From Actinoallomurus purpureus (GTDB taxonomy: Bacteria; Actinomycetota; Actinomycetes; Streptosporangiales; Streptosporangiaceae): a DNA stretch of 64,000 nt. The stretch spans positions 310,001 to 374,000 of the forward strand of contig NZ_JAMXMY010000001.1 in NCBI RefSeq assembly GCF_024055795.1, read 5' to 3'. How positions within the stretch are numbered: position 1 is the first letter of the stretch; each line of letters begins with the position of its first letter. The notes under the pieces were generated by a model, which was not told the DNA's origin, ran no database searches, and saw only the letters and a list, made by a program, of their open reading frames with translations. The position numbers were made by a program, and so were the translations under genes. This document shows, one piece after another, positions 9,038 through 24,181 of the stretch.

Positions 9038-11140
9038 ATGGGTGCCCTGCCGGTCGCGGGAACACGTTTCGTCGGGCGCGGGGATGAGCTGTCCGCCGTC
9101 AGAGCCGCCCTGCGCCGAGGGAGACTGCTCACCTTGACCGGCGGTCCCGGGGTGGGCAAGACCCGCCTGGCGCTGCGGATGGCGGCAGGGGCAGGGCGCT
9201 CGTTCCCGGACGGCATGTGGTTCATCGAACTGGCCCCGCTTCGGGACGGGGAACTGGTCCCCGGCGCGGTCGCCGAGGCCCTGGGCGTGGGCGAGACGAC
9301 CCTCGGGACGCAGGCCTCCCCGTCGCGCAGCCTGGTCGACGCCCTGGTCGATCATCTGTCCGACGGCAGGACTCTTCTGGTCCTCGACAACTGTGAGCAC
9401 GTGCTGGACGCCACGGCGCGGCTCGTTCACACGCTGTTGGGCCGGTGCGGGCGGCTGCGGATCCTGGCCACCAGCCGGCAGACCCTGCGTGTCGGCGGAG
9501 AGCAGGTGCTGACCGTGGCACCGCTGCCCGTTCCGGACCCGGACGACATCCCATCGGCGGGTTCCGTGGTCCGGTTCGACGCGGTCCGTCTCTTCGCCGA
9601 TCGCGCCGCGTGTGCCTCTCGACGGTTCCACGTGACCGACGACAACCACCTCGCGGTCGCCCGGCTGTGCCATCGCCTGGAGGGCAACCCGTTGGCGATC
9701 GAGCTGGCCGCCGTGCACGTACGCGCGATGCCGGTGGAACTGATCCTCGAGCGGCTGGACGGTTACCTCGCCCTGCTCACCGAAGGCAGTCGCGCCGGCG
9801 CCCCCTCCCTGCCGAGTCCGCGCCCGGCCATCGACTGGAGCCACCGGCTGTGCACCCCGCCGCAGCAGACGCTGTGGCGACGGTTGGCCGTCTTCCAGTG
9901 CGGGTTCGACCTCGAGGACGCCGAGGCGGTCTGCTCGGGTCGCGGAATCGACCGGCACGAGGTCGGCCCGCTTCTCGCCGATCTCGTGGGGATGTCGATC
10001 GTCGTCAGGGAGCCGCAGCCGCATGCCTTCCTGCGCTACCGGCTACCGGAGATGATCCGTGAGTTCGGCATCGAGGCGCTGTCGCGGTCGTCCGACGAAG
10101 GCTGGTTGCGCGGCCGCCACGGTGAGCACTATCGGCGGTTGATCGAACTCGTCGACGCGGACTCCATGAACCGGCATCAGGCCGTGTGGCTCGCGTGGCT
10201 GCGCCTGGAGCGCGCCAACCTGCGAGCCGCCGCCGACCACTACCTGACCGATACCGGCGAGGCCACGCAGGGGCTGCAGATCGTCACCGTCCTGGCCCGC
10301 TACCACCTCGCCATCGGATTGATCAGCAAGGGGCGTTACCAGCTGAGCCGGGCCCTTGACCAGAGTCCCGAGCCCGGCCCGACGCGGGCGAAGGCCCTGT
10401 GGATCGCCGGATGGCTGAACCTCCTGCAGGGGCGCACCACCGAGGGCCTCGACCTCCTGCGGCAGTGCCGCGTCCTCGCCCAGGCGATCGGCGACGCGTC
10501 GGCGCTCCGGCGCGTGGTGCAGTTCACCGGTCTGGCGGAGATCTTCCAGGGCCGGTACGACCGCGCGGGCACGCTCCTCCGTCAGGCGCTGGCGGAGCAT
10601 CACGCCGCGGGCGATGACGACGGCGAGTGGCTCGCCCTGTTCCAGCTGGCGCTCGTCAGCAGCAACCTTGGAGATCACGAACAGGCCATCGCCTACGGCG
10701 AACGATCACTGGCGATCTGCCGGGCGCGAGACGCAGCCTGGGCGGAGGCTCACGCGCTGTTGGTGACCGGGCTCGCCACCCTGTGGTGCGGCGAGACCGA
10801 ACGAGCGGGCCCGCTCCTTCGCGAAGCGCTCCGCGGCATGCACGCCCTGGGTGACCGCTGGGGCATGACCCGGTGCCTGGAGGCGCTCGCCTGGGCCCTC
10901 GCGCCCCGTCGGCCCGCGGACGCCACCCGGCTTCTCGGGGCAGCCTACCGGCTGTGGCGATCGATCGGGTCACCGCCAGAGCAGTGGCGGATGCTGGCGG
11001 ACTCCTGTGAGCACTGGCGGACGTACCTCGAACACGTCCTCGGGCCCGACCGTTTCGCCGAGGATTTCCGCGGCGGCCACGATCTCCTGCTCGATGAGGT
11101 GGTCGGCCAGGCCCTCGGCGAGCCCGCCCACGCGCGGTGA
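9038..11140 (+). CDS. STAND/AfsR-like ATPase with C-terminal helical repeats, no DNA-binding domain
   Basis: Signal-transduction NTPase of 700 residues. After the opening FVGRGDELSAVRAAL come Walker A (GGPGVGKT) and Walker B (TLLVLDNCEHVL), then a winged-helix region and TPR-like helices from roughly residue 370 to the end. Similar actinomycete proteins usually carry a SARP domain at the N-terminus or a LuxR helix-turn-helix at the C-terminus. Neither is visible; the protein ends LLDEVVGQALGEPAH. The start used is the ATG at 9038; a GTG at 8990 would add 16 residues. The gene stands alone, with a terminator 15 bp after the stop. Its partner is unknown, and it lies next to the RiPP locus. Confidence 0.85.
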   Translation: MGALPVAGTRFVGRGDELSAVRAALRRGRLLTLTGGPGVGKTRLALRMAAGAGRSFPDGMWFIELAPLRDGELVPGAVAEALGVGETTLGTQASPSRSLVDALVDHLSDGRTLLVLDNCEHVLDATARLVHTLLGRCGRLRILATSRQTLRVGGEQVLTVAPLPVPDPDDIPSAGSVVRFDAVRLFADRAACASRRFHVTDDNHLAVARLCHRLEGNPLAIELAAVHVRAMPVELILERLDGYLALLTEGSRAGAPSLPSPRPAIDWSHRLCTPPQQTLWRRLAVFQCGFDLEDAEAVCSGRGIDRHEVGPLLADLVGMSIVVREPQPHAFLRYRLPEMIREFGIEALSRSSDEGWLRGRHGEHYRRLIELVDADSMNRHQAVWLAWLRLERANLRAAADHYLTDTGEATQGLQIVTVLARYHLAIGLISKGRYQLSRALDQSPEPGPTRAKALWIAGWLNLLQGRTTEGLDLLRQCRVLAQAIGDASALRRVVQFTGLAEIFQGRYDRAGTLLRQALAEHHAAGDDDGEWLALFQLALVSSNLGDHEQAIAYGERSLAICRARDAAWAEAHALLVTGLATLWCGETERAGPLLREALRGMHALGDRWGMTRCLEALAWALAPRRPADATRLLGAAYRLWRSIGSPPEQWRMLADSCEHWRTYLEHVLGPDRFAEDFRGGHDLLLDEVVGQALGEPAHAR

Positions 11141-11155
11141 TCGCGGGGGGAAGCA

Positions 11156-11190
11156 TTACGGGCGGGGTGCCGGGAGCACCCCGCCCGTAA
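11156..11190. terminator. Bidirectional hairpin terminator
   Basis: A perfect 15-bp stem (TTACGGGCGGGGTGC with its complement) closes on CGGGA and is followed by AAAAAG on the plus strand. The equivalent minus-strand reading is preceded by CCCTTTTT. It can end the ATPase gene on the plus strand and the HExxH operon on the minus strand. Confidence 0.8.
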
Positions 11191-11348
11191 AAAGGGGGAA
11201 GGGGCAAGCTTGTTTGCGAGACGCTAGGGGGCCCATCGGGCCGCGTCAACGAGTTGCTGCCGACATTGTCGAACACGAAGAGCCCGTCATCGCTCCCCGG
11301 GAATCCTCCGGAGCGCCGGTCGACCAGGCGGTCGAACGCCGGGCCCAT
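11191..11348 (-). other. Candidate second precursor-like reading frame, downstream of the HExxH gene
   Basis: This short minus-strand frame begins at an ATG at 11348 with GAGGAGG four to six bases before it, a good ribosome binding site. It lies 60 bp past the HExxH stop. Its product begins MGPAFDRLVDRRSGG and contains DDGLFVFDNVG at residues 20-30, which recalls GDGLFVGFQN in the FxsA precursor. Phe26-Asp27-Asn28 would fit an aromatic-X-Asn cyclophane site. Against it, no stop codon occurs before the terminator at 11156-11190, and the frame runs on into the antisense of the ATPase gene. It could be a real peptide with an unusual end, a frameshifted remnant or chance. Confidence 0.35.
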
Positions 11349-11407
11349 CGCCCCTCCTCGTCCGGACCGCACGGGGAGACACCGACCGGGGTGGCTCCTA
11401 CGGGGAT

Positions 11408-12694
11408 TCACGAACCGTTTGCCCGCAGCCACCTCTCGCGATGACGCGCCGCCTGCCGGCGAGCCCGTGCCAGAGCCGGCCGGGGGACCTTCTCCTCCCG
11501 CCACCGGTCGAGGGTGGCGCGCATCTCGGAGACGAACAGCCGCCCCGCCTCGGTCAGGCGGCCGCTGCGCAGCAGCGCCTCCGCGGCCTCGTAGGCGGCC
11601 TGACGCCATCGCGCGAACTCCGTGTGCGCGTGGAACGCCAGGACGGGGTCGGTCTCGCGCGACCGCTGGCGCCGCCAGTATCCGGCGACGCCCAGGTGGG
11701 CGTACGCACCGTGGAGCAGCCCGACGAGGGGGCGGGGATCGTCCCGCCACGGCGCGTAGAACCGGTCCCGCCCGGGGCCGTCCACCAGCGGGAACAGGTC
11801 CATGAGCGCGTTGAGCTTGGCGTGCTGCACCTCATGGGCGAAGGTGACCGGGATCAGGCGGTCGTCCGGGGGGAGGGACATTGCCACACAGCCGAACGCC
11901 TCGCGGGACGTGGCGCTCGCCAGCGATCCGGCCGGAGAGTCCAGGGGGACCAGGGCGACGATCGTCTCCCTCACCTCCGCGACGACGCCGGGATGGTCGC
12001 GGTCGAGACTCCGCCAGCCCCGTCCTATCCGCGCTCGCCACTCCTCCACCGCCGCCTCCGTCAGACGCCTGTGCCGGGTCGTACGGGACGAGAAGTGGTA
12101 GCCGTCCATGTCGTCCAGAACGAATCTGACACCGCGCCCCGAGATGACGCTGAGCCCGCGCCAGCCGGGCGCCGCGCGGTGCGGGTCGGCGGGCACCTCG
12201 ACGGCGTCGCGGCCGTGAACGATCTCCGCGCCGTCCGGATGCACGCGGACGGAGGCGGGCCCCGGAAGCGATGCCGCGCCCAGCGACGGCAGCTCGACGC
12301 CCGTACCGGGGATCTCGATGCGGGCCGGTACGCGGCCACGGATCGCGGCTGCGGCGGCGATCGTGGCGAGACGCTCGGGATGGACCACGTCGGCCGGGCG
12401 GCGCCGGAGACCCAGCACCGTGCGCAACGCCCAGGCGCCCACGGCGGGATAGGCGAGTACGTCCGACACCGCTTCCGGCGCGGCGTGCTGGATGGCTCCG
12501 AGAGCCTCGTAGGCCGCGCAGACGGCACGGGCCTGCGGATGGCCGGTGGTCTCGGACAGGCCGACGAGCGTCCTGATCAGGGCGACGTGCTTGCTCCGTT
12601 CGGCACGGGCGAGTCGTCGTACCGCGGTGAGGTCGGCGTTCCCGCCGGCGAGGTTCCGGAAGGACACCTCCGGCATGTCGTGCGGGTCGGTCAC
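11408..12694 (-). CDS. HExxH-motif protein of an FxSxx-COOH locus (putative peptide beta-hydroxylase)
   Basis: The 428-residue protein matches the HEXXH-domain family that accompanies FxsB maturases. The motif HEVQH is at residues 287-291, in TFAHEVQHAKLNALMDL, followed by HGAYAHLGVAGYWRR, which may supply further ligands. Members were first thought to be metallopeptidases; some related HExxH RiPP enzymes are now regarded as alpha-ketoglutarate-dependent peptide hydroxylases (family knowledge). The GTG start overlaps the FxsB stop as GTGA, so the two are translated together. The role proposed is hydroxylation or proteolysis of the FxsA-derived peptide. Which of the two cannot be decided from sequence. 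Confidence 0.82.
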   Translation of the reverse strand: MTDPHDMPEVSFRNLAGGNADLTAVRRLARAERSKHVALIRTLVGLSETTGHPQARAVCAAYEALGAIQHAAPEAVSDVLAYPAVGAWALRTVLGLRRRPADVVHPERLATIAAAAAIRGRVPARIEIPGTGVELPSLGAASLPGPASVRVHPDGAEIVHGRDAVEVPADPHRAAPGWRGLSVISGRGVRFVLDDMDGYHFSSRTTRHRRLTEAAVEEWRARIGRGWRSLDRDHPGVVAEVRETIVALVPLDSPAGSLASATSREAFGCVAMSLPPDDRLIPVTFAHEVQHAKLNALMDLFPLVDGPGRDRFYAPWRDDPRPLVGLLHGAYAHLGVAGYWRRQRSRETDPVLAFHAHTEFARWRQAAYEAAEALLRSGRLTEAGRLFVSEMRATLDRWREEKVPRPALARARRQAARHRERWLRANGS

Positions 12695-13911
12695 GCCGGC
12701 TCGCCGGATGAGGTGAGATGGGTGACGAGCCGGGCACGGACATGGGAGATGAGCCGGTACAGGTCGGGGCAGTAGACGGAGGGGTTGGCGAAACCCTCAC
12801 CGGCGCGGTAGCGGTGCGGGTAGAGCCCGCCCCCGCACTGGTCCCGCAGGTCGCAGGAGCGGCAGGTCGGCGACAGGGCGTCGACGCCGATCTGCCGGGC
12901 GGCGATCCCGGGTGTGAGCAGCGCCGAGTCGAAGGGATCACGCGCGACGCATAAGCCGGTGGCCGCCGCTCCTTCGTACGCGGAGGCGAGCATGTCGGAC
13001 TGTTCGATGGCCCCGTCCGTCTCCACCACGACGAAGCCGACCGCGCCGGTGCCGAGACCCTCGACGCGCGATCGGCCGTCGACCAGCGTTCTGAGGATCT
13101 CCTCGAACAGGCGGATCCTGGTCCGGTGACCGAGTCCTTCGCTCCACCGGTCGAAGATCGCGATGAGCCAGTCGGCGTAGGGCGTCTCGGCGGAGTCGGC
13201 GTCCCGTCGTGGTGGCGGAGCCGACCAGTTCCCGTGGGGGAGCAGGAAGTCGATGACCGGTGGATCGAACTCCAGCAGCGCCTCGTAGGTGCGCTCTGGT
13301 GGATTGCGGAGGTCAACGGTGCACAGGAGACCGCCGAACAACCGCCGGTAGGGCTCACGGGACAGGAGGCGCACCCCCCGGACGACGTCGGCGTGGCTGC
13401 CCCGTCCGCCGGGGCGGCGCCGGTTCCGGTCGTGCGCGGTGCGGTCGCCGTCGACGCTGACGCTGACCTCGACGTCCAGTGCGTCGAAGAGACGCAGGAA
13501 GTCCCGGTCGAGCCGGAGCCCGTTGGTCTGAACGGCGAAGTGCGAACGGACCGCCGTCCCGAGGGCGGCGCGGATCCGCCCGACGACGTACTGGATGAGT
13601 TCGCCGCCGGCGAGCAACGGCTCACCGCCGTGGAGAACGATGTCGACGGCGGTCAGCCCGTGTGACGCCACGTGCTCGGCGATCCGGTCGGTGACGTGGT
13701 CGACGGTCTCACGCGACATGACCCGGGGCCGCGAACGCCACCGCCCGTCGGCCATCGTGTAGACGTAGCAGTAGCGACACGCGAGATCACACCGACTATG
13801 CAGCTTTATCACGAACTGCCGGAAAGGGGACGGTTTCCAGCCGTTCTTGATCAGTGTGTCGATGTTCAATGAGGCGGGCCATTCCGAGTCCCGCGCGGGG
13901 TATCGACTCAT
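12691..13911 (-). CDS. fxsB: FxsB-type radical SAM/SPASM peptide maturase (cyclophane-forming)
   Basis: Radical SAM enzyme of 406 residues. The [4Fe-4S] motif is CDLACRYCYV with Cys41, Cys45 and Cys48. The GGEP-like stretch LHGGEPLLAGG follows. The C-terminal SPASM region has CRSCDLRDQCGGG and later NPSVYCPDLY, for auxiliary clusters. The opening NGWKPSPFRQFVIKLHSRCD is the FxsB signature. The family joins an aromatic ring to the side chain of the residue two positions later, giving a three-residue cyclophane. It is divergent from the fxsA precursor and overlaps the HExxH gene by 4 bp. Probable substrate: the product of the gene at 14072. Confidence 0.93.
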   Translation of the reverse strand: MSRYPARDSEWPASLNIDTLIKNGWKPSPFRQFVIKLHSRCDLACRYCYVYTMADGRWRSRPRVMSRETVDHVTDRIAEHVASHGLTAVDIVLHGGEPLLAGGELIQYVVGRIRAALGTAVRSHFAVQTNGLRLDRDFLRLFDALDVEVSVSVDGDRTAHDRNRRRPGGRGSHADVVRGVRLLSREPYRRLFGGLLCTVDLRNPPERTYEALLEFDPPVIDFLLPHGNWSAPPPRRDADSAETPYADWLIAIFDRWSEGLGHRTRIRLFEEILRTLVDGRSRVEGLGTGAVGFVVVETDGAIEQSDMLASAYEGAAATGLCVARDPFDSALLTPGIAARQIGVDALSPTCRSCDLRDQCGGGLYPHRYRAGEGFANPSVYCPDLYRLISHVRARLVTHLTSSGEPA

Positions 13912-14046
13912 GGACTCGTCGTTCTTCCGACGCTATGGCTGTGACGACTGTATATAGCAGATCATGGCGCTTGCGAACTTTCAAGTCTCCTGCTCGCTCC
14001 TGTCCGCTGTCGTGCAGGCCGAGGCATTATCATGGGTTAGGAGGGG

Positions 14047-14079
14047 ATGAGGGAACGGATGGTGATGAACCATGGATGA
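14047..14079 (+). other. Ten-codon upstream ORF overlapping the fxsA start
   Basis: An AGGAGGGG run is followed directly by ATG at 14047 and a frame of ten codons (MRERMVMNHG) that stops at 14077-14079, across the fxsA start at 14072. FxsA itself has only a weak binding site and an in-frame stop at 14066. Coupling of precursor translation to this leader is possible. The purine run is very close to the first ATG, so an internal start at 14059 or 14065 may be used. Confidence 0.35.
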
Positions 14080-14284
14080 CTCCGATCCGGTCTTTCGGTC
14101 AGGCCTCATCGATATTTCCGGAATAGACCTCGACCGGCTGCGCGATCTTCCCGATTCGATGTTCAGTGCCACGTTGCGCCGGATCCTTGAGGAAAGCGAG
14201 GACGGAGACGGGCTCTTTGTGGGTTTTCAAAACATCCACGGCGGCCGTTTGTGGCACATGCCGTCGGATACGGGTGACGTGTGA
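14072..14284 (+). CDS. fxsA: FxsA-type RiPP precursor peptide, variant without the terminal FxSxx
   Basis: Precursor of 70 residues. The leader FRSGLIDISGIDLDRLRDL and the helix SMFSATLRRILEE match FXSXX-COOH precursors. In the usual family the chain stops at Phe-x-Ser-x-x. Here the equivalent position reads GLFVGFQNI, giving Phe52-Gln53-Asn54, and the chain continues for 16 residues through Trp61-His62-Met63 to the end. Phe-Gln-Asn fits the aromatic-X-X pattern used by three-residue cyclophane enzymes; Trp-His-Met could be a second site. It is divergent from fxsB and 45 bp before fxsT. The start is fixed by an in-frame TGA six bases upstream. Confidence 0.8.
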   Translation: MDDSDPVFRSGLIDISGIDLDRLRDLPDSMFSATLRRILEESEDGDGLFVGFQNIHGGRLWHMPSDTGDV

Positions 14285-14329
14285 TACAAGAGGGGGCATG
14301 GCCGTCGGTCGCGCCTCGGTGGAGTGCTC

Positions 14330-17300
14330 ATGAACACTGTCGAACGCGAGATGACGCCCGGCGTAATCGTCAGCTTCCTCGCCTCGGCCAGCGGGGTCGG
14401 GCGGACCGGCGCGATCGCCAACGTCGCCTGGATTCTGGCCGCCGCCGGGAAACGCGTGCTCATCGTTGACTGGGGCACGGAAGAGGCGGATACGGATCAG
14501 TACCTCGCCCCGTTCCACAGTGACTGGATCGCTCTCTCGCGAGAGGTCACCACCGGGCTTTCCCGTCTAATGGTCAACGAGGCCAGGCCGGAGCGGCGAC
14601 GGCAGTTGGCTCAGTTGATACCCGCCCAGGTTCGCCGTTACCTTCTGCCCGGCGCCGACGGCCGGATCGAGTCGATCTCCGGTGCCCCGGGAAAGGGCTC
14701 CACGCTACCGCCGGATGACGACCTCATCGCCAAACTTCGAAACCTCCTTCGCGCCAGTGGCTACGATTATGTGCTCATTGACGCTCCAACCGATATGTCG
14801 GAGTCCGTCGTCCGTGGAGCGGCGCGTTTCTCCGATGTGGTGGTGATGTGCTTCACGATTCGCCGGCAGGCGGTGGAGACGGCCGCCAGGCACACACGGC
14901 GGCTGCGGGAGCAGTCCATCCTCCCGCTTCGCGTCATGGCGATGCCCACCCAGGTCGACGACAGCGACCCCGAACGCATCGCCGAGAGCAGAGGCCTGCT
15001 GCGCGACGAGTTCGAGCAGGTCCTCGCCGACTTCGACGCGGACGTGGTCGAGATCCCCTACTTCCCGCTCGACGCCTACGATCGCCGGCTCGCGGCGCTG
15101 ATGGACGTGCCGGAGACACCGGGCTCGCCCTGCGCGGCCTATCACCACCTGGCCAGGGCGGTGACGGGCGGTGAGGTCGGCGCGCCGCCCGCGGTGACCG
15201 CGGAGGTGCGCACCCGCTATCGCCGCGCGCTCGGCCTGCCGGTCGGCGGCGACAAGGACACGATCTCCATCGCGTACGCTCCGCCCGACCGGCCGTGGGC
15301 CGACTGGATCGCCGCGCAGTTCCGGCTCGCCGGCATGAACGTCGAGCGTTTCACCGGAGCGGACCCGGCACGCGGTCCACTGATCGTGGTGCTGTCGTCC
15401 CGGTCCGCCGAACCGGCCGGCCCGGTCGGCGGCGAGGTCGTGAACGTCCGCGTCGGCGGCCCGCGCGCCACCACCGACGCGGTCGACCTGCGAGACCAGA
15501 CGGACGAGTCGACGGCCCGCGCGTTACTTCTCAGCCACTTTCACCTGATCCCCGATCCCCGGCGGTCCGCACCGGCCACGCCCGCGTACCCGGGAGGCCG
15601 TGAGCCGGCCCGGCTCGCCTACCGCCTTCCGGCGCGCAGTCTCGCCTTCGTCGGCCGCGATGACGAACTCGAAGCACTGCGCGACCGCCTGCGCCGCGGC
15701 GACGGAACTCCGTGGGTGCTCAGCGGGGCGGCCGGCGTCGGCAAGAGTGAGATCGTCCGCGAATACGCGCACCGCTTCTCCCACGACTACAGCGTGATCT
15801 GGTGGATCTCGGCACAGGGCCGCGAGCGCGTGCGGCACGGGCTGCGCGCCTTGGCGGAGCGTCTGCCCGTGCAGGAGAGCGGAGACCCGATCCAGGCCGC
15901 GCTCACGGCGCTTCGCACGGTCCCGGAGCTCGGACGATGGCTGTTGGTCTATGACAACGCCGACGATCCGGAGGACCTCGACGGCCTGCTTCCCCGGGGC
16001 GGCACCGGCGACGTGCTGATCACCACTCGCCGCGACGTACGCAACTCCACTCCGGTCTCGGCGCTCGCGGCGGACGAGGGCGTCGCGCTGCTCGGGGCGC
16101 AGGTGCGCGGCATCCTCCCGGAGGAGGCGCGGAGCGTCGCCGCCGCCGTGGAGCATCTTCCCCTCTCACTACGGCTGGCGGCCGCATGGCTGCGCGAGAC
16201 CGTGGGCCGGCTGAGGGCCTGTGGCTTCTCCGCCGGGGAGGCGACCGCGTGGGCGGTCGCGGAGTTCCACGCCCAGCTGGACCGGCCGGCCGTGCCGGCC
16301 GGCGACGACCACCCGCCGTCCGCCAGGGTCTGCCTGGAGCTGTCGCTGCGTGCGTTAGGCGAGGAAGAGCTCGGCGCCCTGACCGTACGACTGATCCAGC
16401 TGTGCGCGTTCCTCTCGCCGGAGGAGGTCGGGCTGACCCTCCTCTGCTCTTCGGCGATGCTCGACGAGCTGTCGGCCGCGGAGGGGGGAGAGGCGCTCCG
16501 CGAGGACCGGAAGGTCGCGCACCAGGTGATCTGGCTGGCCGTGCGGTACGGCCTCGCCGAGGTCGACTGGGCGCGTCGGCCCGCCCTGCGCACGCATCGA
16601 CTGCTGCACTCCCTGGTCCGTGCCGGGCTCGATGCCCGGGAGGTCGCCGAACGCCGGGAACAGGTGCTCCGGGCGCTGGCCGCGTACGCGCCCAACGACG
16701 CGGACGGCGGGATCGACGATCACATCGACGCCTATCGCGAACTGCAGCAACACGTCGTGGCCTCCGGTGCGCTGCGGAGCGATGATCGAGGCGTCCGGCG
16801 CTGGATCATCGCCCAGCTCGGCTACCTGGCGGTGACCGGCGATGCCGAGACCATCTCCGCCGCACTGGAGATGGCCGAGACGGCACGCGCCCGCTGGGAG
16901 CGGACGTGCGATCCGGACGACCCGCTGCTGGCGCGGCTCCTGTCCCGCATCGCCGACCTGCGCCGGGATCTCGGCGACAACGCCGGAGCGCTCGTCCTCG
17001 ACGACGCCGCGCTGGAGCACCAGCGTACGAACCTCGGCGTGACCCATCCGCGCACCCTGATCAGTGGCCGTGGCCGCGGCGGCACGCTGCGGGGGATGGG
17101 ACGGTTCGCCGAGGCGCTGGCCGAAGACCAGACGACGTGGACGGGCTTCCGGAAGACGTTCGGCGACGAACACCCCGAGACGCTGATGGCGGCGCACGAC
17201 CTCGCCGTCTCCACCTACCTCATGGGCGACCATCGCAAGGCCTTGTTGCTCGGGCAGGACACGTACCGGCGCCGAGCGCGCCTCCTGGGCCCGGGTGATC

Positions 17301-18022
17301 ACCGCACGTTGGGCGAGGCGCCCAACCTCGGCGCCTACCTGCGCGCCATGGGGCGTCTCGACGATTCCGACGGGCTCCTGAGGGAGGCCCTGACACGCGC
17401 CAAGGAGCTCAGCCCGCATCGGCCCCGGCTGGAGCTCCGCATCGCCAAGGAGCTGGCGATCACCATGCGGTGCAACGACGAGGTGGAGAGCGCGTACGAG
17501 CGCAGCCACGAGGCGTACCTCCGTTACGACGAGCTCTTCGGCGACGGCCACCCTCAGACGCTGGCCTGCGGGCTCAGCCTGGCGATCGCTTACCACGCGA
17601 TCGGGGAGACGTCCGCGGCGGTCGAGCTGGGCACCCGGTGCGCGGAGGCCTACGACCGTGTCATGGGCGAAGACCATCCGTTCCGCCACGTGTGCCGGCT
17701 GGACCTCGGCCTCTTCCTCCTGGGCGCCGGCGACCTCGACGGATCGCTGGAGTACACCGCCTCGGCCCACACCGGCCTGACGGCCGAGCTCGGTGAGCAG
17801 CACCCGTGGGCGGTGGCCGCCGCCATCGGGCATGCCTGCAGCCTGGCCCCCACCGACCCCGAGCGTGCCATGGAGCTCGAGGAGACCGTGCTGGCCGACA
17901 CGGGCGACTTCCTGGGCCCGGACCATCCGTACGCCCAGATCCTCGTACGGAATCTGCGGATCGGCCGTACCGGTGCGCGCGGCGACCGCGGATACGCCGC
18001 CATCGATGTGCCGTCGACGTGA
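14330..18022 (+). CDS. fxsT: FxSxx-COOH system TPR protein: ParA-like, TIR-like, NB-ARC and TPR domains
   Basis: Large 1230-residue cytoplasmic protein of the FxsT type. Residues 11-60 open a ParA/MinD-like domain with a deviant P loop (SGVGRTG, 21-27) and VLIDAPTDMSES later. A TIR-like segment follows near 309 (DTISIAYAPPDRPWADWI). An NB-ARC ATPase starts near 436 (LAFVGRDDELEALRD), with Walker A SGAAGVGKS near 464 and Walker B WLLVYDNAD near 536. TPRs fill about 820-1230 (for example HPRTLISGRGRGGTLRGMG). GGTGGAG precedes the ATG at 14330. The domain order resembles STAND sensors, so it may sense a signal and control or respond to the modified peptide. Its exact role in these loci is not established. 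Confidence 0.88.
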   Translation: MNTVEREMTPGVIVSFLASASGVGRTGAIANVAWILAAAGKRVLIVDWGTEEADTDQYLAPFHSDWIALSREVTTGLSRLMVNEARPERRRQLAQLIPAQVRRYLLPGADGRIESISGAPGKGSTLPPDDDLIAKLRNLLRASGYDYVLIDAPTDMSESVVRGAARFSDVVVMCFTIRRQAVETAARHTRRLREQSILPLRVMAMPTQVDDSDPERIAESRGLLRDEFEQVLADFDADVVEIPYFPLDAYDRRLAALMDVPETPGSPCAAYHHLARAVTGGEVGAPPAVTAEVRTRYRRALGLPVGGDKDTISIAYAPPDRPWADWIAAQFRLAGMNVERFTGADPARGPLIVVLSSRSAEPAGPVGGEVVNVRVGGPRATTDAVDLRDQTDESTARALLLSHFHLIPDPRRSAPATPAYPGGREPARLAYRLPARSLAFVGRDDELEALRDRLRRGDGTPWVLSGAAGVGKSEIVREYAHRFSHDYSVIWWISAQGRERVRHGLRALAERLPVQESGDPIQAALTALRTVPELGRWLLVYDNADDPEDLDGLLPRGGTGDVLITTRRDVRNSTPVSALAADEGVALLGAQVRGILPEEARSVAAAVEHLPLSLRLAAAWLRETVGRLRACGFSAGEATAWAVAEFHAQLDRPAVPAGDDHPPSARVCLELSLRALGEEELGALTVRLIQLCAFLSPEEVGLTLLCSSAMLDELSAAEGGEALREDRKVAHQVIWLAVRYGLAEVDWARRPALRTHRLLHSLVRAGLDAREVAERREQVLRALAAYAPNDADGGIDDHIDAYRELQQHVVASGALRSDDRGVRRWIIAQLGYLAVTGDAETISAALEMAETARARWERTCDPDDPLLARLLSRIADLRRDLGDNAGALVLDDAALEHQRTNLGVTHPRTLISGRGRGGTLRGMGRFAEALAEDQTTWTGFRKTFGDEHPETLMAAHDLAVSTYLMGDHRKALLLGQDTYRRRARLLGPGDHRTLGEAPNLGAYLRAMGRLDDSDGLLREALTRAKELSPHRPRLELRIAKELAITMRCNDEVESAYERSHEAYLRYDELFGDGHPQTLACGLSLAIAYHAIGETSAAVELGTRCAEAYDRVMGEDHPFRHVCRLDLGLFLLGAGDLDGSLEYTASAHTGLTAELGEQHPWAVAAAIGHACSLAPTDPERAMELEETVLADTGDFLGPDHPYAQILVRNLRIGRTGARGDRGYAAIDVPST

Positions 18023-18037
18023 CAAGGAGTGCTCAGG

Positions 18038-19027
18038 ATGCGACCCGAAGGCGCCGATCCGTCGGACCCGGCCGGGAGCGGCCTGGTCCGCACCGTCGCG
18101 CCCTACGCCGGCCCGGCGTTCGAGGAGAGGATGGCCCTGTGCGAGGACGTCATGGTCACGAGCCCGGACCTGTGCCACCTCTCCTACTACAGCGCGGGCG
18201 TGTTCCACTACGGCTTCGACCGGCCTCCGGGAGTGGCGGTGGCGCGCGACGTGCGGATGAGCGATTACCTCAACGCCGGGCGCCGGCTGACCTTCGCGGT
18301 GGACGGGCTCGACGAGCGGCTGGAGGCGGTCGCCACCGGCCGCCTCATCCGTACGGTGCTGCATGCGGAGGAGGCGGTGATCTACTGTCACTCGGTCGTC
18401 CCGCACGAGCACCTGGTCGCGGTGGCCCGTGAGCGGAGCGGGCCCGAGTCGGTGTTGCCCGAGCTGCCACGAGTGCGTGCCGCCGACCGCACGGTCTCCG
18501 AGCTGGCCACCGCCCTGCGGGCGCATGTCAGTCTCTCCACCCAGAATCCCGGCGGCTGGCTCACCGAGGGGCCTCCCGACAGGCCGCGCGTGGCGGCGCC
18601 CTCCCGGCGCGGGGACCGGACGCTGCGGGGAGAGACCGACGACGCCCAGGTCGAATTGCTCTCGCGGGTCGTCGATCCCTCGATCCTTCACTATCTCGCC
18701 TACCACCACGGCGCGAAGGAGTTCGCCGTCGACTACTTCGACCACGCGACGACGGCCCGTTTCTTCGGCCACATCACCTCTCAGGAGCGCCGCCGGTTCT
18801 ATCTGAAGTGGGGGAGGCGGTTCCCGCAGCTGGCGGCCGAGCTCGCGCAGGTGATGCGGACGGTCGCGGGCGGTCGGTTGCTCCGCGTGGTGCTGGACGT
18901 GGAGCAGGGGGCGATCTACTACGTCCGACTGAGCGCTGGGCGGCACCTCATCGGCGTGACTCTCGATCAGTCCAAGGTCGTCGCGGCCGATGACCGGGTG
19001 GGCCGCCTCGCGGTGGACCTGGCCTAA
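18038..19027 (+). CDS. Uncharacterised protein with an internal tandem duplication, RiPP-locus associated
   Basis: No family recognised. The product is 329 residues, soluble, with AAGGAG eight bases before the ATG at 18038 and only 15 bp after fxsT, so it is almost certainly cotranscribed. Two copies of a domain of about 90 residues are visible. Repeat 1 (about 45-134) contains RRLTFAVDGLDERLEAVATG and then GRLIRTVLHAEEAVIY. Repeat 2 (about 216-312) contains RRFPQLAAELAQVMRTVAGG and then GRLLRVVLDVEQGAIYY. Each copy looks like a small helix-plus-sheet domain, perhaps of roadblock-like type, but that is a guess. Context suggests an accessory or sensing role in the FxSxx system. Confidence 0.75.
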   Translation: MRPEGADPSDPAGSGLVRTVAPYAGPAFEERMALCEDVMVTSPDLCHLSYYSAGVFHYGFDRPPGVAVARDVRMSDYLNAGRRLTFAVDGLDERLEAVATGRLIRTVLHAEEAVIYCHSVVPHEHLVAVARERSGPESVLPELPRVRAADRTVSELATALRAHVSLSTQNPGGWLTEGPPDRPRVAAPSRRGDRTLRGETDDAQVELLSRVVDPSILHYLAYHHGAKEFAVDYFDHATTARFFGHITSQERRRFYLKWGRRFPQLAAELAQVMRTVAGGRLLRVVLDVEQGAIYYVRLSAGRHLIGVTLDQSKVVAADDRVGRLAVDLA

Positions 19028-19169
19028 TTTAGTTGTTAAGTGTCATTTGACGGATAGCGACAACCTTCCGCGGAGTAGCTTTCTCTTCCGTCTTCTGCCG
19101 GGCGCACCGCTGTGAAAGAATGCGCTTCGGTTGCCCGCATACGGGGAGCGGGTGAACGAGAGGCGACTC

Positions 19170-20300
19170 ATGCGCTCTTTCGCGGGTACGGTCGCGAAGC
19201 GGCTCGGTGTCATCGTGGCCGTGGCCCTGCTGGGTTGGCTGTTCGCCCACTCCGTGTCTTTAGGTGACCTCGTGCACTCGCGTGGTTATCTGTATGTGGC
19301 GACCACATTACTCGCAATCGGATTGTACAGCAGCACCTATGGCATCGACCGTGACGAGATCAAGGCGGACGCGCGTACCGTTCTGCTCGCCGTCACGTTC
19401 GGTGTATTGGTCAAGGCGACCCTGATCGCGGTGGTCATGTACGCCGTATTCCGGCGACCGGAATACCTGGTGCTCGGCGTGGCGGTCGCCCAGATCGACC
19501 CGCTTTCCGTCGCGGCGATGCAGAAGCGGTCCCGAATGTCGCCACGGGCCAAGGCCGTGCTGCTCGCCTGGGCCTCCTTCGACGATCCCGTGACCATGCT
19601 CCTCACCATCTACATATCCGCGTTCACCCTGTCGATCCTCGGCGCTCACGGCCGGAGCGGCCCGATCGCCGACGGCACGCTCTCGGCGTTCGTCACCGAC
19701 CTCGCCGCGAATCTGCTGTTCGCCGGAGTCGCGTCGGTCATCTGGTGGCTCGCCGGCCGTTGGATGAACGGCCGGGTGAAGCAGGGGGTCCAGATGGCCG
19801 TGCTGCTGATGCTGGCGGCGTTCGCGGTGTGGCAGTTCCTCATGTTGGGGCTGGCCATCGTGGGCCTGTTCTTCCGGCCGAGGATGGGCCGGCATCTGGG
19901 CATCGTCACGCAGGCGGCGTTCGTGTGCGCGGTCTTCGCGTTGGGGATGCTCCTGCCCGGAATCGATATCGTCCCCGGGCTGGTCCTCGCGGCGGGGGCA
20001 TTCGGCGCCCAGGCGCTCGTCGCCCTGCTGCTCGCGCGCCGGCACACGGCGAACGATCGTGGCTATCTGGCCTTCGGTCAGCAGAACGGCATCACGGCCA
20101 TCATCCTGGCGCTGCTGCTCCAGCCCGCGTTCCCGCGCACGATCGGCATCGTGGCTCCCGCCATCATCCTGGTCAACATGCTGCACATCGCCTGCAACGC
20201 CTATTGGGACGCGCGAGTGACCGCCGCGTCGCATCGCGAGACGGAGTCGGCGGACCGGCTTTCTACGCCGTCTCGAAAGACTCAAGCATCGCCTTCTTGA
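19170..20300 (+). CDS. Cation:proton antiporter-like membrane protein
   Basis: Integral membrane protein of 376 residues with about ten hydrophobic helices. The segments VAQIDPLSVAAM and WASFDDPVTMLLT hold the paired acidic residues expected in the ion-binding helices of CPA-type Na+/H+ or K+/H+ antiporters. The helix 1 region is GVIVAVALLGWLFAH. The ATG at 19170 follows GAGAGG; a GTG at 19152 and a TTG at 19131 are alternatives. The stop lies inside the 3' end of the convergent AAA ATPase gene, overlapping it by 38 bp. It carries the same strand as the RiPP genes but is 140 bp away, so cotranscription is uncertain. Ion specificity is unknown. Confidence 0.82.
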   Translation: MRSFAGTVAKRLGVIVAVALLGWLFAHSVSLGDLVHSRGYLYVATTLLAIGLYSSTYGIDRDEIKADARTVLLAVTFGVLVKATLIAVVMYAVFRRPEYLVLGVAVAQIDPLSVAAMQKRSRMSPRAKAVLLAWASFDDPVTMLLTIYISAFTLSILGAHGRSGPIADGTLSAFVTDLAANLLFAGVASVIWWLAGRWMNGRVKQGVQMAVLLMLAAFAVWQFLMLGLAIVGLFFRPRMGRHLGIVTQAAFVCAVFALGMLLPGIDIVPGLVLAAGAFGAQALVALLLARRHTANDRGYLAFGQQNGITAIILALLLQPAFPRTIGIVAPAIILVNMLHIACNAYWDARVTAASHRETESADRLSTPSRKTQASPS

Positions 20301-22485
20301 CGCGGATGCCCAGCCGTTCGAAGGCCTTTCTCACCTCGCGGTTTCCGGAGCGGCCAGGGCCGAGACCCGGGGCCGGTGCCGCAGGGCGCGCCGTGTCGTC
20401 GAGCTGAAACGTCGGCACTTGCTCATAGAGCGCATCGTAGGTGTCACAAAGCGCCGCCAGCCGGTTCAATTCCGCCCTGTCCGGGTGTACGGATCGAAGT
20501 GCCTGATACCAGCCCGCCACCTGCCCCTGGAACACGGTCACCAGATGCCGCATCAGCGTCGCCACGCCGATCGGCTGGTAGCCCCTTCGGAGGCGTTGCA
20601 GCAGCACGCGTCGCGCGACACGGCCATCGTCCCGGTCCGCGGTGAACGCTCTCGCGATGAGACCTTCGATGTCATCGAACTCCTCCAGGCCGGCCTGCGC
20701 CTCGTCGAAGAGTCTGCGCACCTGCGGTGGCATCTCCAGCCCCGCCACGGGGACCGTCTGGGCGATCCCCTCGATCTCCTGACGGAGCACGCGCAACTGC
20801 TGTTCGTACGACGAGCGCATCGCGTCCAGCGAATCGGCGAACTGCTCGAGATGGTCCTGGGTGTGGGACTGCATCTGGTACATCCGGTCCATCCGCTCAC
20901 GGACCAGCGCGAACGCGTCTCCGCCGAGACGCGACTCGAGCCGCCCGACGGCGCCGATCAGGGCGGCGTCGAAGTCCTCGGCGAACCGATTCGGCTGGTA
21001 CACCAGGGGTTCTTCCTCCATCGGCACCGCGAGGTCGGGAGCGAGGCCGTTGACGATCAGCAGGATCCGGCTTCCGGGGCAGGCTTCCTGGACGGCGCGG
21101 AGCCGGTGCTCGAGCCGGTCGCGTCCGGCCGGTTCCAGCACCGAGTCGGTCAGTAACAGGGCGATGCCGGTGTCGTCCCCCCCGACGGGCACCCAGTAGT
21201 CGACACGCGGCATCGACGGGTCTCCGTACACGTGATCACGCATGAAGGGCCACCCCCGCGTGTTCAGCAGCCGCCGGACCTCCGCCCTCATGTCATCGAC
21301 CGTCAACGACTCGAAATTCTCCCGGACGGCCTCACGCACCATCGGCTCGGTCACCGCGCTCACCCCGGCCGCCCGCTCGTACAGCGTGCCGCACAGCTGC
21401 ACCACCTGACGCGGGTTGCCGCCGGTCAGATGGGTCAGGTAGGAGATCGTCTCCGGGGTGAACGGCGCGATCGTGCGTTCGCCCAGGACCTCACGCAACG
21501 ACTCCTCGATGAACCGGCGGACGTCCGTCGAGCTGAGTGCGGACATGCGCACCGGCGGGCCGATCCGATCGAGCGTGTCACCGCCGAGCGGCTTGAGGAA
21601 GTCGCGAACCCCGGACAGCACAAGGAACGCTCCGGCATCGCGGGACACCTCGAGCAGTTTCTTGAACGCCTGAGCCGTCGACGTCTCGGGGCGGCTGTCC
21701 GCCGAAAGGATCTTCTCTAACTCGTCGAACATCAGGATGAAGCGGTGGTCCTGCCCGCCGTACAGCAGAGCGAAGACCCCGATCGACTCCAGCGCGGCGG
21801 CGTCCGTGGCGATGGCGGTCGTGACGCCTCGCTCGACGAGGAGCTGGTGGGGTGGACTGCCGCCCAGCCATTCCCAGGCCGCGCTCTCGAATCCCGGCCG
21901 TAGGAGGAGCGACAGGGCGGTGCCGTAGGCGTCGTTCTTGGTGACGGCGCGCAGCCTCGCCTGGAGGTTGCGCAGGAGGAGGTCGGAGCTCAGCCCGAGG
22001 CGGGCCGCGATGGTCTGGGGATCCAGCGAACCGTCGCGGAACCCTTCCTGGACGTCGACCCTCAGGTCCAGCCCGTCCAGTGAGCGCGCGACGATCTCGG
22101 CGTAGTAGTCACGGACCCGGGCGCTGACGTCCTCGCTCTTCATTCTGCCGATGAAACGCTCGAGGTAGAGCGCCAGAAAAGTGTCCGCGGGAGAGTCGAC
22201 GTACCGCCAGTTGATGTCGCGGAGCCCGCTGAGGTCGGCCCGGCGCAGCAGGTGGTGGAGCAGGTGGGTCTTGCCCGTGCCGAACTCGCCGACGACCGCC
22301 AGCACGTTGCCGTTGGACGTGGTCCGGTGCGCGAGGTAGTCGTCCAGGCGCCGGTCGGCCTCACGGATCGCCGGCGTCTCGACCGTGACGAGCGCCGAAT
22401 CGGGGTCGCGGATACTCGCGACCGCGCTGCTCGGAAAGGGATTGCGCTGGGCCCATGGTGACGGATGGTCGTTGCTGGCGCTCAT
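20263..22485 (-). CDS. AAA/STAND-like ATPase with large C-terminal region, third gene of a coupled operon
   Basis: Protein of 740 residues. It has Walker A GEFGTGKT (66-73), Walker B FILMFDELEK (249-258) and a sensor-2-like GGNPRQVVQLCG, the pattern of ORC/Cdc6-like AAA proteins. Beyond about residue 410, DYWVPVGGDDTGIALLLTDS and RILLIVNGLAP look like an alpha/beta domain that might be nuclease-like; this is speculative. A heptad-rich stretch (about 540-590) and a C-terminal helical domain follow. The ATG overlaps the preceding stop by 4 bp. With the lipoprotein and second ATPase it forms a compact three-gene unit without recognised relatives, perhaps a defence or envelope-signalling system. 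Confidence 0.72.
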   Translation of the reverse strand: MSASNDHPSPWAQRNPFPSSAVASIRDPDSALVTVETPAIREADRRLDDYLAHRTTSNGNVLAVVGEFGTGKTHLLHHLLRRADLSGLRDINWRYVDSPADTFLALYLERFIGRMKSEDVSARVRDYYAEIVARSLDGLDLRVDVQEGFRDGSLDPQTIAARLGLSSDLLLRNLQARLRAVTKNDAYGTALSLLLRPGFESAAWEWLGGSPPHQLLVERGVTTAIATDAAALESIGVFALLYGGQDHRFILMFDELEKILSADSRPETSTAQAFKKLLEVSRDAGAFLVLSGVRDFLKPLGGDTLDRIGPPVRMSALSSTDVRRFIEESLREVLGERTIAPFTPETISYLTHLTGGNPRQVVQLCGTLYERAAGVSAVTEPMVREAVRENFESLTVDDMRAEVRRLLNTRGWPFMRDHVYGDPSMPRVDYWVPVGGDDTGIALLLTDSVLEPAGRDRLEHRLRAVQEACPGSRILLIVNGLAPDLAVPMEEEPLVYQPNRFAEDFDAALIGAVGRLESRLGGDAFALVRERMDRMYQMQSHTQDHLEQFADSLDAMRSSYEQQLRVLRQEIEGIAQTVPVAGLEMPPQVRRLFDEAQAGLEEFDDIEGLIARAFTADRDDGRVARRVLLQRLRRGYQPIGVATLMRHLVTVFQGQVAGWYQALRSVHPDRAELNRLAALCDTYDALYEQVPTFQLDDTARPAAPAPGLGPGRSGNREVRKAFERLGIRVKKAMLESFETA

Positions 22486-23384
22486 GATTGCACCTGGCTG
22501 GCGATGTAGTCGGCGATCTTATTGTAATTCACGGCCCCTATCGACGAGGCGGGCTTCTCGCCGATCTCCTTATAGACACCGTACAGATATCGCTGCAGCT
22601 GTCCGATGGTTAGTGAGTTGTTCTTTTCGCGCCGCCGCCTCAGCAGTCGTTCGGCGGCCTCGAGCCGCAGGGGCGGCACGCATGCGGCACCGTCGTCGCC
22701 CGCCCGTTTCATGCTGAAGCGTCGGCCGTCTCCCGGCTGGAGCGAGCCGACGGACAGGTGGGCCACGCGTGTCTCCGGCGGTGGTTGGAGCGAGCCCGCC
22801 GCGGCGGCGACCACGGGGTCGGAGCTCTCGACGAAGAAGACGAGACGTTGGTGGACCACTTCGGCGTAGCGCCTCACCTCCTGGAGGAGCTCGGAGACGG
22901 GAAGCAGGATCAGCAGCAGGCGCTGTGGCCCCAGGGCATCGCCGACCCCGAGGTAGCCGCGCCACAGGTCGTCGTAACATTCTTCAAGGCTTTTAAGCAC
23001 CTCCTGGGAGAACGTCCTGTTCTGGTCTCGCAGCAGCATTTCGTACACCGCACGCATGCGCTTTTCGATCACGAAGTTCCTGGGGACCCTCCGGCTCAGA
23101 TCGACGATATGCGGTGACATCTCCGCGGCCGTGGACTCGGTGTGCAGCCAGTGCGCGCATCGGTTGATCAGGGAGGTCTTCCCGCAGCCGGGGGGCCCGG
23201 TGACGAGCACCAGGCCACCGGCGTTCCGCAGGGCGGCCGTATCGTGGAAGACGCGCTGGAACTCCTTGAACGCGGTTTCGCAGCTGTCGACGTCGACGTA
23301 GTAGTCGATGTGGGCCGGGTTCTTCCAGGGGGTCAGTGGCGCGTTGTGGGAGTCGGCCGCACCGGGGATCTCGAACGGGTTCAC
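22482..23384 (-). CDS. P-loop ATPase, second gene of the coupled operon
   Basis: Predicted ATPase of 300 residues. Walker A is GPPGCGKT at 63-70. The Walker B candidate RLLLILLPVSEL lacks the usual acidic residue, so hydrolysis may be weak or depend on another residue. It begins MNPFEIPGA; the partner AAA protein has NPFPSSAV near its N-terminus, a hint of a common recognition element. A C-terminal helical part ends NYNKIADYIASQ. It overlaps the genes on both sides by ATGA, meaning strict coupling and probably a fixed stoichiometry. No family assigned; loader, adaptor or regulatory subunit of the larger ATPase are all possible. Confidence 0.68.
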   Translation of the reverse strand: MNPFEIPGAADSHNAPLTPWKNPAHIDYYVDVDSCETAFKEFQRVFHDTAALRNAGGLVLVTGPPGCGKTSLINRCAHWLHTESTAAEMSPHIVDLSRRVPRNFVIEKRMRAVYEMLLRDQNRTFSQEVLKSLEECYDDLWRGYLGVGDALGPQRLLLILLPVSELLQEVRRYAEVVHQRLVFFVESSDPVVAAAAGSLQPPPETRVAHLSVGSLQPGDGRRFSMKRAGDDGAACVPPLRLEAAERLLRRRREKNNSLTIGQLQRYLYGVYKEIGEKPASSIGAVNYNKIADYIASQVQS

Positions 23385-24181
23385 GACGTGCCTCCCGGCC
23401 TGCGCATGGTGCGGTGCCGCTGCAGCGGGTGCTCCAGCGCCTCGGCGACCCGCTCGACGTTGTTCTCCAGATCACTCACCCGTTGCCGCATCCGTGTGAC
23501 ATGCCGGTCCAGGTCGGGGCCCGGCTCGCCCAAGAGGTCCCCGGTCACCTTCCGGAGTTCGTCGCGCAGGTGCCGGACCAGGGTCCAGCCGGGCCGTACG
23601 GACTGACACTTCCGCAGCTCGGCGTCGAGGTCGTCACGGCGTTCGGTCACGTCGCGCCCGGCGGGCCGGCCACGGCCGCCCGGCTCGACCCACGCGTCGA
23701 GGTACGCCCGGCCGGCGCGACCGTACTCGTGAGCGGCCGACCGCAGATTCTCCGCGCGTTGCCGGGACTCCGTGCGCCTGGACTGGACGATCCCGCCCGC
23801 CAGCGTCAGCAGGCCCCCGACGACCAGGGAAACGATGTTGGCCGCGATCGAGATCAGAGGATTCGCGGAGTCCGTGGCGTGCCCGCCCGCGGGAGACCGC
23901 ACGAGAGCCGTGCAGGCCTGGTCGAAGTCCTCGCGGTGACCTTCGCGCCAGCGTTCGGGGGTCACCTCCTGACCCTTCACGCGTAACAGGCCGGGGGCGC
24001 TCGCCGGAGCGGCTAAGCCGAGAGTGACGGCGGCATTGGCCAACTCCGGACGCTCGGCGGGCGACAGGCAGAAGACGCGCCAGGCGTCCTGCTCGGCCGG
24101 GCTCGCGGAGGAGCAGCCGGACAGTCCCGCCACTGAGCCGCCCAGCAGCAGGAAGAACACCGTCCAGGTCGACTGCCGCAT
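23381..24181 (-). CDS. Membrane lipoprotein with a second transmembrane helix, first gene of the coupled operon
   Basis: Predicted envelope protein of 266 residues. The N-terminus has a hydrophobic stretch and a lipobox-like GSVAGLSGC. A folded segment with conserved-looking cysteines follows. A second helix, ISIAANIVSLVVGGLLTLAGG (about 110-130), would put the remaining 135 residues in the cytoplasm: an Arg/Glu-rich, probably coiled-coil region. GGGAGG lies eight bases before the ATG. Its stop overlaps the P-loop ATPase start. The topology, an outside domain joined to a cytoplasmic helical domain next to two ATPases, fits a sensor or anchor. No family recognised. Confidence 0.65.
   Translation of the reverse strand: MRQSTWTVFFLLLGGSVAGLSGCSSASPAEQDAWRVFCLSPAERPELANAAVTLGLAAPASAPGLLRVKGQEVTPERWREGHREDFDQACTALVRSPAGGHATDSANPLISIAANIVSLVVGGLLTLAGGIVQSRRTESRQRAENLRSAAHEYGRAGRAYLDAWVEPGGRGRPAGRDVTERRDDLDAELRKCQSVRPGWTLVRHLRDELRKVTGDLLGEPGPDLDRHVTRMRQRVSDLENNVERVAEALEHPLQRHRTMRRPGGTS

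What the first reader, a model, noticed from the sequence alone, without database searches (positions are those of the whole stretch)
11408..19027. FxSxx-COOH RiPP locus with an HExxH partner, STAND-like FxsT and a new companion protein
FxsB maturase and HExxH protein (coupled, minus strand) are divergent from a precursor, FxsT and a duplicated-domain protein (plus strand). The first four fit the known FxSxx-COOH family. The last gene, 15 bp behind fxsT, is not a component I recognise. The combination of peptide modification with a ParA/TIR/NB-ARC/TPR protein looks more like a sensing or immunity-type module than a simple antibiotic cluster; no dedicated exporter or peptidase is adjacent, unless the HExxH protein is one.
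Basis: partly seen in the sequence, partly recalled or inferred. Interest (0 to 1): 0.72.

Follow-up and report, generated by a model that had tools for sequence, protein, structure and literature searches.

The report
Peptide-linked Roadblock and ion-antiporter control module
A bacterial gene cluster that makes a small modified peptide and an immune-receptor-like ATPase also carries, again and again in relatives, a protein with the predicted Roadblock regulator fold and a sodium/proton-antiporter-like membrane protein, which suggests that the peptide system controls ion flow across the membrane.

Summary
In detail: HExxH and FxsB genes (minus strand) diverge from a precursor, FxsT and an unknown 329-residue protein (plus strand). 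The unknown protein ("P5") recurs: in 74 of 80 related loci it follows FxsT. Its predicted structure (pLDDT 90) is two tandem Roadblock/LC7 (MglB-like) domains; no Pfam, NCBIfam, PADLOC or PHROGs model matched it. Across 297 genomes P5 occurs in 54, P6 in 50, both in 49; the one P6-only case is a fragment. P5-P6 pairs also occur with no fxs gene nearby. Three further genes (20263-24181: two ATPases, one membrane protein) recur beside the system. The precursor is an FxsA homologue, but its FQN motif sits 16 residues from the end, so strict FxSxx-COOH is not met. Best reading: a RiPP/STAND signalling system of the kind Kaur et al. 2020 described, wired through a Roadblock adaptor to a cation/proton antiporter. 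Parts and linkage are well supported; the signalling chain is inferred. New variant of a known kind.

The parts
11408..12694 (-). aKG-HExxH-type peptide beta-hydroxylase homologue (428 aa)
   Evidence: TIGR04267 171 bits, cut-off 40; HEVQH in sequence; found in 52 of 74 FxsT-P5 loci
12691..13911 (-). FxsB, cyclophane-forming radical SAM/SPASM maturase homologue (406 aa)
   Evidence: TIGR04269 460.7 bits, cut-off 370; CxxxCxxC in sequence; found in 66 of 74 loci
14072..14284 (+). FxsA-type precursor (70 aa), FQN motif with 16 trailing residues
   Evidence: TIGR04268 33.1 bits, cut-off 28; homologues in 58 of 80 loci at E<=0.01 with a model built here
14324..18022 (+). FxsT: degenerate ParA-like, TIR-like, NB-ARC/STAND and TPR parts (start 14324 GTG or 14330 ATG)
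   Evidence: NF040586 691.6 bits; Pfam AAA_31, TIR_2, AAA_16, TPR_12 over cut-off; motif comparison
18038..19027 (+). P5: tandem Roadblock/LC7-fold protein (329 aa)
   Evidence: AlphaFold2 pLDDT 90, pTM 0.90; Foldseek MglB and Roadblock hits; follows FxsT in 74 of 80 loci
19152..20300 (+). P6: CPA/NhaP-fold cation/proton-antiporter-like membrane protein (start 19152 GTG or 19170 ATG)
   Evidence: AlphaFold2 pLDDT 91; Foldseek PaNhaP E 7e-8; PF00999 in 5 of 51 aligned members, best 1e-14, not in the window protein; co-occurrence with P5
20263..22485 (-). P7: P-loop ATPase (740 aa), weakly AAA/Cdc6-like
   Evidence: AAA_16 1e-6, below cut-off; Sll1717-family ATPase 1.8e-8, below cut-off; in 54 of 80 loci
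22482..23384 (-). P8: second P-loop ATPase (300 aa)
   Evidence: AAA_16 4e-7, below cut-off; invariant G63, G68, K69 in 21 rows; in 50 of 80 loci
23381..24181 (-). P9: signal/lipobox-like N-terminus (by eye), two invariant Cys, one predicted TM helix, helical tail (266 aa)
   Evidence: hydropathy scan; 18-row alignment; in 29 of 80 loci

Best explanation
A nine-gene RiPP/STAND signalling system whose output is a membrane ion transporter. Supported here: FxsA, FxsB, HExxH and FxsT are homologues of the FxSxx system; P5 is predicted to be a tandem Roadblock protein; P6 is predicted to have the NhaP/CPA antiporter fold; P5 and P6 are near-obligate genomic partners; the P5-linked FxsT sampled form their own clade. 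Inferred: FxsB joins F and N of the FQN motif into a cyclophane and the HExxH enzyme hydroxylates the peptide. The mature peptide is a ligand, or threshold-setter, of FxsT, sensed through its TPR region. FxsT switches by its intact NB-ARC ATPase; its ParA-like and TIR-like domains have lost catalytic motifs and act as docking surfaces. P5, an intramolecular Roadblock pair, binds FxsT and passes the state to P6, changing Na+ (or K+)/H+ exchange. P9 (outside domain plus membrane helix) with ATPases P7/P8 is a separable input or assembly module.
For: FxsT lies upstream of P5 in 74 of 80 loci, median match gap 149 bp, and in 30 of 39 family-genome loci. P6 is directly downstream of P5 in 47 of the 74, elsewhere on the stretch in 12, and adjacent in 6 of 6 loci without upstream FxsT. 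Over 297 genomes: P5 54, P6 50, both 49, 7 of them on different contigs; in three of these (G146, G009, G028) P5 lies over 30 kb from its contig ends, so they are truly apart. The one P6-only genome holds a C-terminal fragment. In fxs-free pairs one Roadblock domain is fused to TM helices (L051 computed; others by eye). Structures. P6 keeps AQIDP in 51 of 51 rows and FDDP as invariant columns. P5 distances track FxsT domains, r 0.81-0.90 over 44 loci. NB-ARC GK kept in 71 of 73 P5-type FxsT; ParA signature Lys kept in 11 of 70 against 9 of 9 in the comparison loci. P5-type FxsT monophyletic in the tree, 74 tips, support 0.80.
Against: No physical interaction, transport or peptide product was or could be tested. 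P6 was not found on 15 of 74 FxsT-P5 stretches; P7-P9 are absent from many. Three of 39 family loci (L154, L156, L163) have a P5 match with neither FxsT nor P6 nearby, and five P5 genomes lack P6. P6 tracks P5 and the FxsT domains less well (r 0.69-0.79) than P5 tracks FxsT. fxs-free pairs show that P5-P6 exists without a peptide system beside it, so the peptide may be a later add-on. Mirror-tree correlations and the Fisher test ignore shared ancestry. Roadblock identity rests on a predicted fold: Foldseek E about 2e-4, the top-ranked hit is a longin protein (Mon1, low TM), and no sequence profile hit a Roadblock family.
Confidence: 0.5

Rival explanations
1. A conflict (abortive-infection-like) system: a phage or envelope insult sensed by P9/P7/P8 and FxsT triggers P5 to open or drive P6, collapsing the ion gradient and halting growth; the RiPP is toxin or amplifier.
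For: Kaur et al. 2020 (section 24 read) link FxSxx peptides and this AP-ATPase type to conflict systems in actinobacteria; patchy presence (P5 in 54 of 297 genomes); STAND architecture.
Against: PADLOC gave only weak or generic matches; P6 keeps antiporter-type motifs (meaning of the motifs recalled); P5-P6 pairs exist with no fxs gene nearby.
Confidence: 0.25
2. An ion/pH homeostasis or osmotic-stress unit: P5-P6 is the ancestral regulated antiporter, and the FxsA peptide is a regulator that signals population or envelope state.
For: P5-P6 occurs alone with TM-anchored Roadblock in loci such as L051, L052, L054, L055; P6 is well conserved, 44% mean column identity over 51 rows.
Against: Does not by itself explain a STAND ATPase beside P5 in 74 of 80 loci and a maturase in 66 of those.
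Confidence: 0.2
3. Ordinary FxSxx RiPP cluster with P6 acting as exporter of the mature peptide and P5 as its regulator.
For: P6 is the adjacent membrane protein.
Against: P6 resembles Na+/H+ exchangers, not peptide exporters; P6 exists without any fxs gene nearby.
Confidence: 0.04
4. P5-P9 are neighbours by chance or by general gene clustering.
For: P6 and P7-P9 are missing in part of the loci.
Against: 49 of 50 P6 genomes carry P5, at least three with the two genes far apart; 27 of 31 P7 genomes carry P5.
Confidence: 0.01

Closest known systems
Standalone FxSxx peptide-processing systems with AP-ATPase and inactive MinD/ParA-like domain (Kaur et al. 2020, PMC7159879; section 24 and passages seen)
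   Same: Small precursor, radical SAM/SPASM, HExxH protein, AP-ATPase with TIR, ParA-like and TPR parts
   Different: Term searches of its main text found no roadblock, LC7, longin, antiporter or exchanger; here P5, P6 and P7-P9 recur
FxSxx loci with a long, apparently fused FxsB-HExxH frame and ParA-type FxsT (FxsBH-type)
   Same: Same FxsT architecture; sister clade of the P5-type FxsT in the tree
   Different: Fused maturase (open frames over 700 aa) in 8 of the 9 loci fetched; L147 showed only FxsT. These 9 were picked for lacking a P5 hit, so their lack of P5 is partly by choice; P7-P9 absent in 9 of 9
MglB / CvnB / MfpD Roadblock proteins of bacterial GTPase systems
   Same: Roadblock fold; Cvn and MfpD papers seen as listing and abstract starts only
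   Different: P5 has two domains in one chain, and no small GTPase was recognised by eye among the 22 listed neighbour families
NhaP/NHE (CPA) antiporters
   Same: Fold and DP/DD-type motifs (motif meaning recalled)
   Different: About 375 aa, PF00999 detected in only 5 of 51 members, genomically bound to a Roadblock protein
PflC/PosC aKG-HExxH enzymes (PMC12636437; start of abstract and passages seen)
   Same: HExxH peptide hydroxylase chemistry proposed here
   Different: Different precursors; the terms FxsB and SPASM do not occur in that paper's main text

Membership tests
FxSxx-COOH RiPP system | FxsB maturase over curated cut-off | tested here: met
   460.7 bits, cut-off 370
FxSxx-COOH RiPP system | Precursor matches TIGR04268 | tested here: met
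   33.1 bits, cut-off 28
FxSxx-COOH RiPP system | Precursor ends FxSxx-COOH | tested here: not met
   FQN followed by 16 residues ending GDV
FxSxx-COOH RiPP system | Cyclophane on the precursor | not testable with these tools
   needs mass spectrometry or NMR
FxSxx-COOH RiPP system | FxsT (NF040586) | tested here: met
   691.6 bits, cut-off 300
aKG-HExxH peptide beta-hydroxylase | TIGR04267 over cut-off | tested here: met
   171 bits, cut-off 40; activity not testable here
Roadblock/LC7 | Fold | tested here: met
   predicted a-b-b-a-b-b-b-a twice; MglB TM up to 0.79 on target length
Roadblock/LC7 | Sequence profile match | tested here: not met
   no Roadblock Pfam hit in 17 and 46 members
Roadblock/LC7 | Partner small GTPase encoded nearby | tested here: inconclusive
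   none recognised by eye among the 22 most recurrent neighbour families listed; most were not run against a family library
CPA Na+/H+ antiporter | Fold | tested here: met
   PaNhaP E 7e-8, TM 0.64/0.58
CPA Na+/H+ antiporter | Family profile | tested here: inconclusive
   window protein no PF00999 hit; 5 of 51 members hit, best 1e-14
CPA Na+/H+ antiporter | Ion/proton exchange | not testable with these tools
   needs a transport assay
Known anti-phage defence system | PADLOC core models | tested here: not met
   only weak or generic P-loop and radical-SAM matches

The most novel reading that the evidence does not exclude
An NLR/STAND-type receptor, tuned by its own post-translationally modified peptide, uses a tandem-Roadblock adaptor to gate a sodium/proton antiporter: an effector class (controlled ion exchange) and a non-GTPase use of Roadblock that, as far as I recall, would be new for bacterial STAND systems.
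Probability: 0.35. Interest if true: 0.85.

Novelty: new variant of a known kind. Interest (0 to 1): 0.7.

Why it matters
FxSxx systems are common in this family (FxsB in 199 of 297 genomes), yet my searches found no tested biological output for them, only the proposal of Kaur et al. 2020. A near-obligate Roadblock-antiporter pair downstream of FxsT gives a concrete, testable output, ion or pH flux, and points to a Roadblock family that the profile libraries searched here miss.

Tried and rejected
HA2 hemagglutinin hits of the P5 profile (best E 0.026) were taken as chance: with the deeper alignment the best hits were no better than E 0.3 and the predicted fold is Roadblock. The mad8, BrxD, DpdH (P7, P8) and viperin (FxsB, E 5e-9) PADLOC hits are generic P-loop or radical-SAM similarity. 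A catalytic TIR effector was considered; the TIR-like stretches of the window and of the relatives shown lack a recognisable catalytic-Glu motif (motif recalled; part of the output was cut; one search shows 12 P5-type and 9 comparison rows). The promoter/terminator scan found nothing above shuffles; Rfam none at gathering score in 10500-25000. ParA-type FxsT alone does not predict P5: 11 of 82 places (the ParA query misses diverged copies, so a low count). Literature searches were badly posed and returned noise; others gave nothing relevant.

Choices behind the counts: the 80 loci are the best 80 of 140 relatives and were found with P5; the 20 loci are 20 of the 54 P5 genomes. 'Upstream FxsT' means same strand and within 2.5 kb of the P5 match (3 of 74 are over 1 kb); 'adjacent P6' means same strand, within 1.5 kb or 600 bp. 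For G066, which has two P5 genes, the second was used. The comparison loci L139-L147 were picked for lacking a P5 hit. The FxsA model was built from 13 seeds, the window and 12 of the same loci. The motif tally takes the first regex match and misreads some rows; one search is the cleaner count. The 297-genome searches score only the best few candidates per genome.
Full report
What is there. The five genes of the finding are real and correctly placed. NCBIfam assigns four above curated cut-offs: FxsB, aKG-HExxH peptide beta-hydroxylase, FxSxx precursor and FxsT. The fifth (P5) has no match in Pfam, NCBIfam, PADLOC or PHROGs; its aligned relatives give no Pfam hit (17 members) or only single-member hits at E 0.04 or worse (46 members). 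The genome holds two other FxsB genes over the cut-off and a fragment. The window's genus is probably Actinoallomurus: the same-genus genome G135 has a contig of 265,673 bases, as does the A. iriomotensis record of L081 (inference).

P5 recurs. P5 relatives occur in 54 of 297 genomes of the family. Of 20 of these loci first fetched, 16 have FxsT next to P5. A scan of the species-genome collection gave 140 relatives, best 80 kept. FxsT lies upstream in 74 of the 80, median match gap 149 bp; the other six are one contig-edge locus and five loci without fxs genes. Over all 39 family loci fetched, FxsT is upstream in 30, P6 alone is adjacent in 6, and 3 have neither. Of the 74, FxsB is found in 66 and HExxH in 52; a precursor is found at E<=0.01 in 58 of the 80.

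What P5 is. AlphaFold2 on a 46-row alignment gives mean pLDDT 90 and pTM 0.90, with the order helix-strand-strand-helix-three strands-helix twice. Foldseek against the PDB ranks a Mon1 longin protein first by E-value (1.4e-4, but TM below 0.3), then MglB (3t1r, E 2e-4; 6hjm_C, TM 0.79 on target length), archaeal Roadblock3 and a Streptomyces Roadblock/LC7 domain. The two halves are homologous (30%, E 2e-9), and the single domain of the fxs-free relative L051 matches the C-terminal half at 43%.

The missed partner. The gene 124 bp after P5 (P6) is a polytopic membrane protein. Its model (pLDDT 91) matches sodium/proton antiporters, best PaNhaP E 7e-8; 5 of 51 aligned members hit PF00999, best 1e-14, though the window protein does not. 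AQIDP is kept in all 51 rows; F137-P140 (FDDP) and Q304-Q305 are invariant. P6 is directly downstream of P5 in 47 of 74 FxsT loci, elsewhere on the fetched stretch in 12 (one match weak, one beside a second P5), not found in 15, and adjacent in 6 of 6 loci without upstream FxsT. Over 297 genomes P5 is in 54, P6 in 50, both in 49; 30 are adjacent, 12 on the same contig otherwise, 7 on other contigs. In three of the seven (G146, G009, G028) P5 lies more than 30 kb from its contig ends and no P5 lies near P6, so the genes are truly apart; the other four may be assembly breaks. Fisher p is 4e-49, which ignores shared ancestry. The P6-only genome G271 has just a C-terminal fragment. The five P5 genomes without P6 are G004, G079, G106, G150 and G215; the P5 matches of G079 and G150 are weak (E 1e-7 and 7e-4), those of the other three are not.

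More neighbours. Clustering the predicted genes of 81 loci shows, besides FxsT, P5, FxsB and P6, three further recurring families, which in the window lie at 20263-24181 on the minus strand. By tblastn P7 is in 54, P8 in 50 and P9 in 29 of 80 loci, and in 0 of 12 stretches chosen for having fxs genes or fragments without P5. P7 is in 31 of 297 genomes, 27 with P5. P7-P8-P9 also stands alone in L167 and L171, so it is a separable module. P7 and P8 are P-loop ATPases with only generic similarities. P9 has a signal/lipobox-like start (by eye), two invariant cysteines, one TM helix and a helical tail.

FxsT and the peptide. P5-type FxsT forms a clade (74 tips: window and 73 loci; local support 0.80), sister to nine comparison proteins (support 0.999), with one canonical FxsT as root. 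The NB-ARC P-loop GK is kept in 71 of 73, but the ParA signature lysine in only 11 of 70, against 9 of 9 in the comparison set. The window precursor ends FVGFQN followed by 16 residues. Of 59 precursors (window and 58 loci), 23 end in aromatic/His-x-N/S plus two residues, 12 of them FxSxx and 10 FxNxx; the window is among the 36 that do not. Strict FxSxx-COOH is thus not met, while homology is.

Interpretation. Kaur et al. 2020 (section 24 read in full; passages) described the standalone peptide systems with an AP-ATPase and inactive ParA-like domain and proposed a toxin or signal; term searches there found no roadblock, LC7, longin, antiporter or exchanger. That FxsB makes cyclophanes is in the NCBIfam name; the three-residue cross-link is recalled. 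The new content is the Roadblock-antiporter pair and the P7-P9 module. The most economical chain is peptide, FxsT, P5, P6; only the parts, the gene linkage and the co-inheritance are shown. Whether the result is defence, homeostasis or signalling is open.

Limits. All evidence is comparative or predicted. The Roadblock call rests on predicted structure. Genome counts come from one family plus a P5-seeded scan. Statements about the literature cover only the held open-access library and the ten searches made.

Noticed in passing
L136 (G000:C11:566500-586000): A second FxsA/FxsB/HExxH/FxsT locus in the same genome, precursor ending VVAGFNSTV, FxsT without the ParA part, no P5-P9 match.
   Followed up: partly
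L051, L052, L054, L055, L123, L124, L131, L133, L134, L165, L166: Pairs of a Roadblock-domain protein (TM-anchored in those read) and P6 with no fxs gene nearby; L123, L124, L131, L133 are Planomonospora and Planobispora.
   Followed up: partly
L167 and L171: P7-P8-P9 runs without P5, P6 or fxs matches on the stretch.
   Followed up: partly
L040 / L130: Two P5 genes flank HExxH and FxsB, the second one followed by P6.
   Followed up: no
L080, L082, L091 and other loci (16 in the cluster, many Streptomyces): P5 loci that also carry FxsC-like TIR genes; two from L080 match NF040588 below cut-off.
   Followed up: no
window 8990-11140 (+): 716-aa AAA/TPR protein with weak AfsR, HaaT and FxsT similarity on the far side of the HExxH gene; not among the recurring neighbour families.
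   Followed up: partly
L004 / L138 (G000:C52 start): FxsB-like N-terminal fragment (118 bits, 166-aa frame) near a contig end.
   Followed up: no
L178 (G271:C590): P6 C-terminal fragment without P5 nearby, apparently a remnant.
   Followed up: yes
L154, L156, L163: P5 matches with neither FxsT nor P6 on the fetched stretch; their context was not examined.
   Followed up: no
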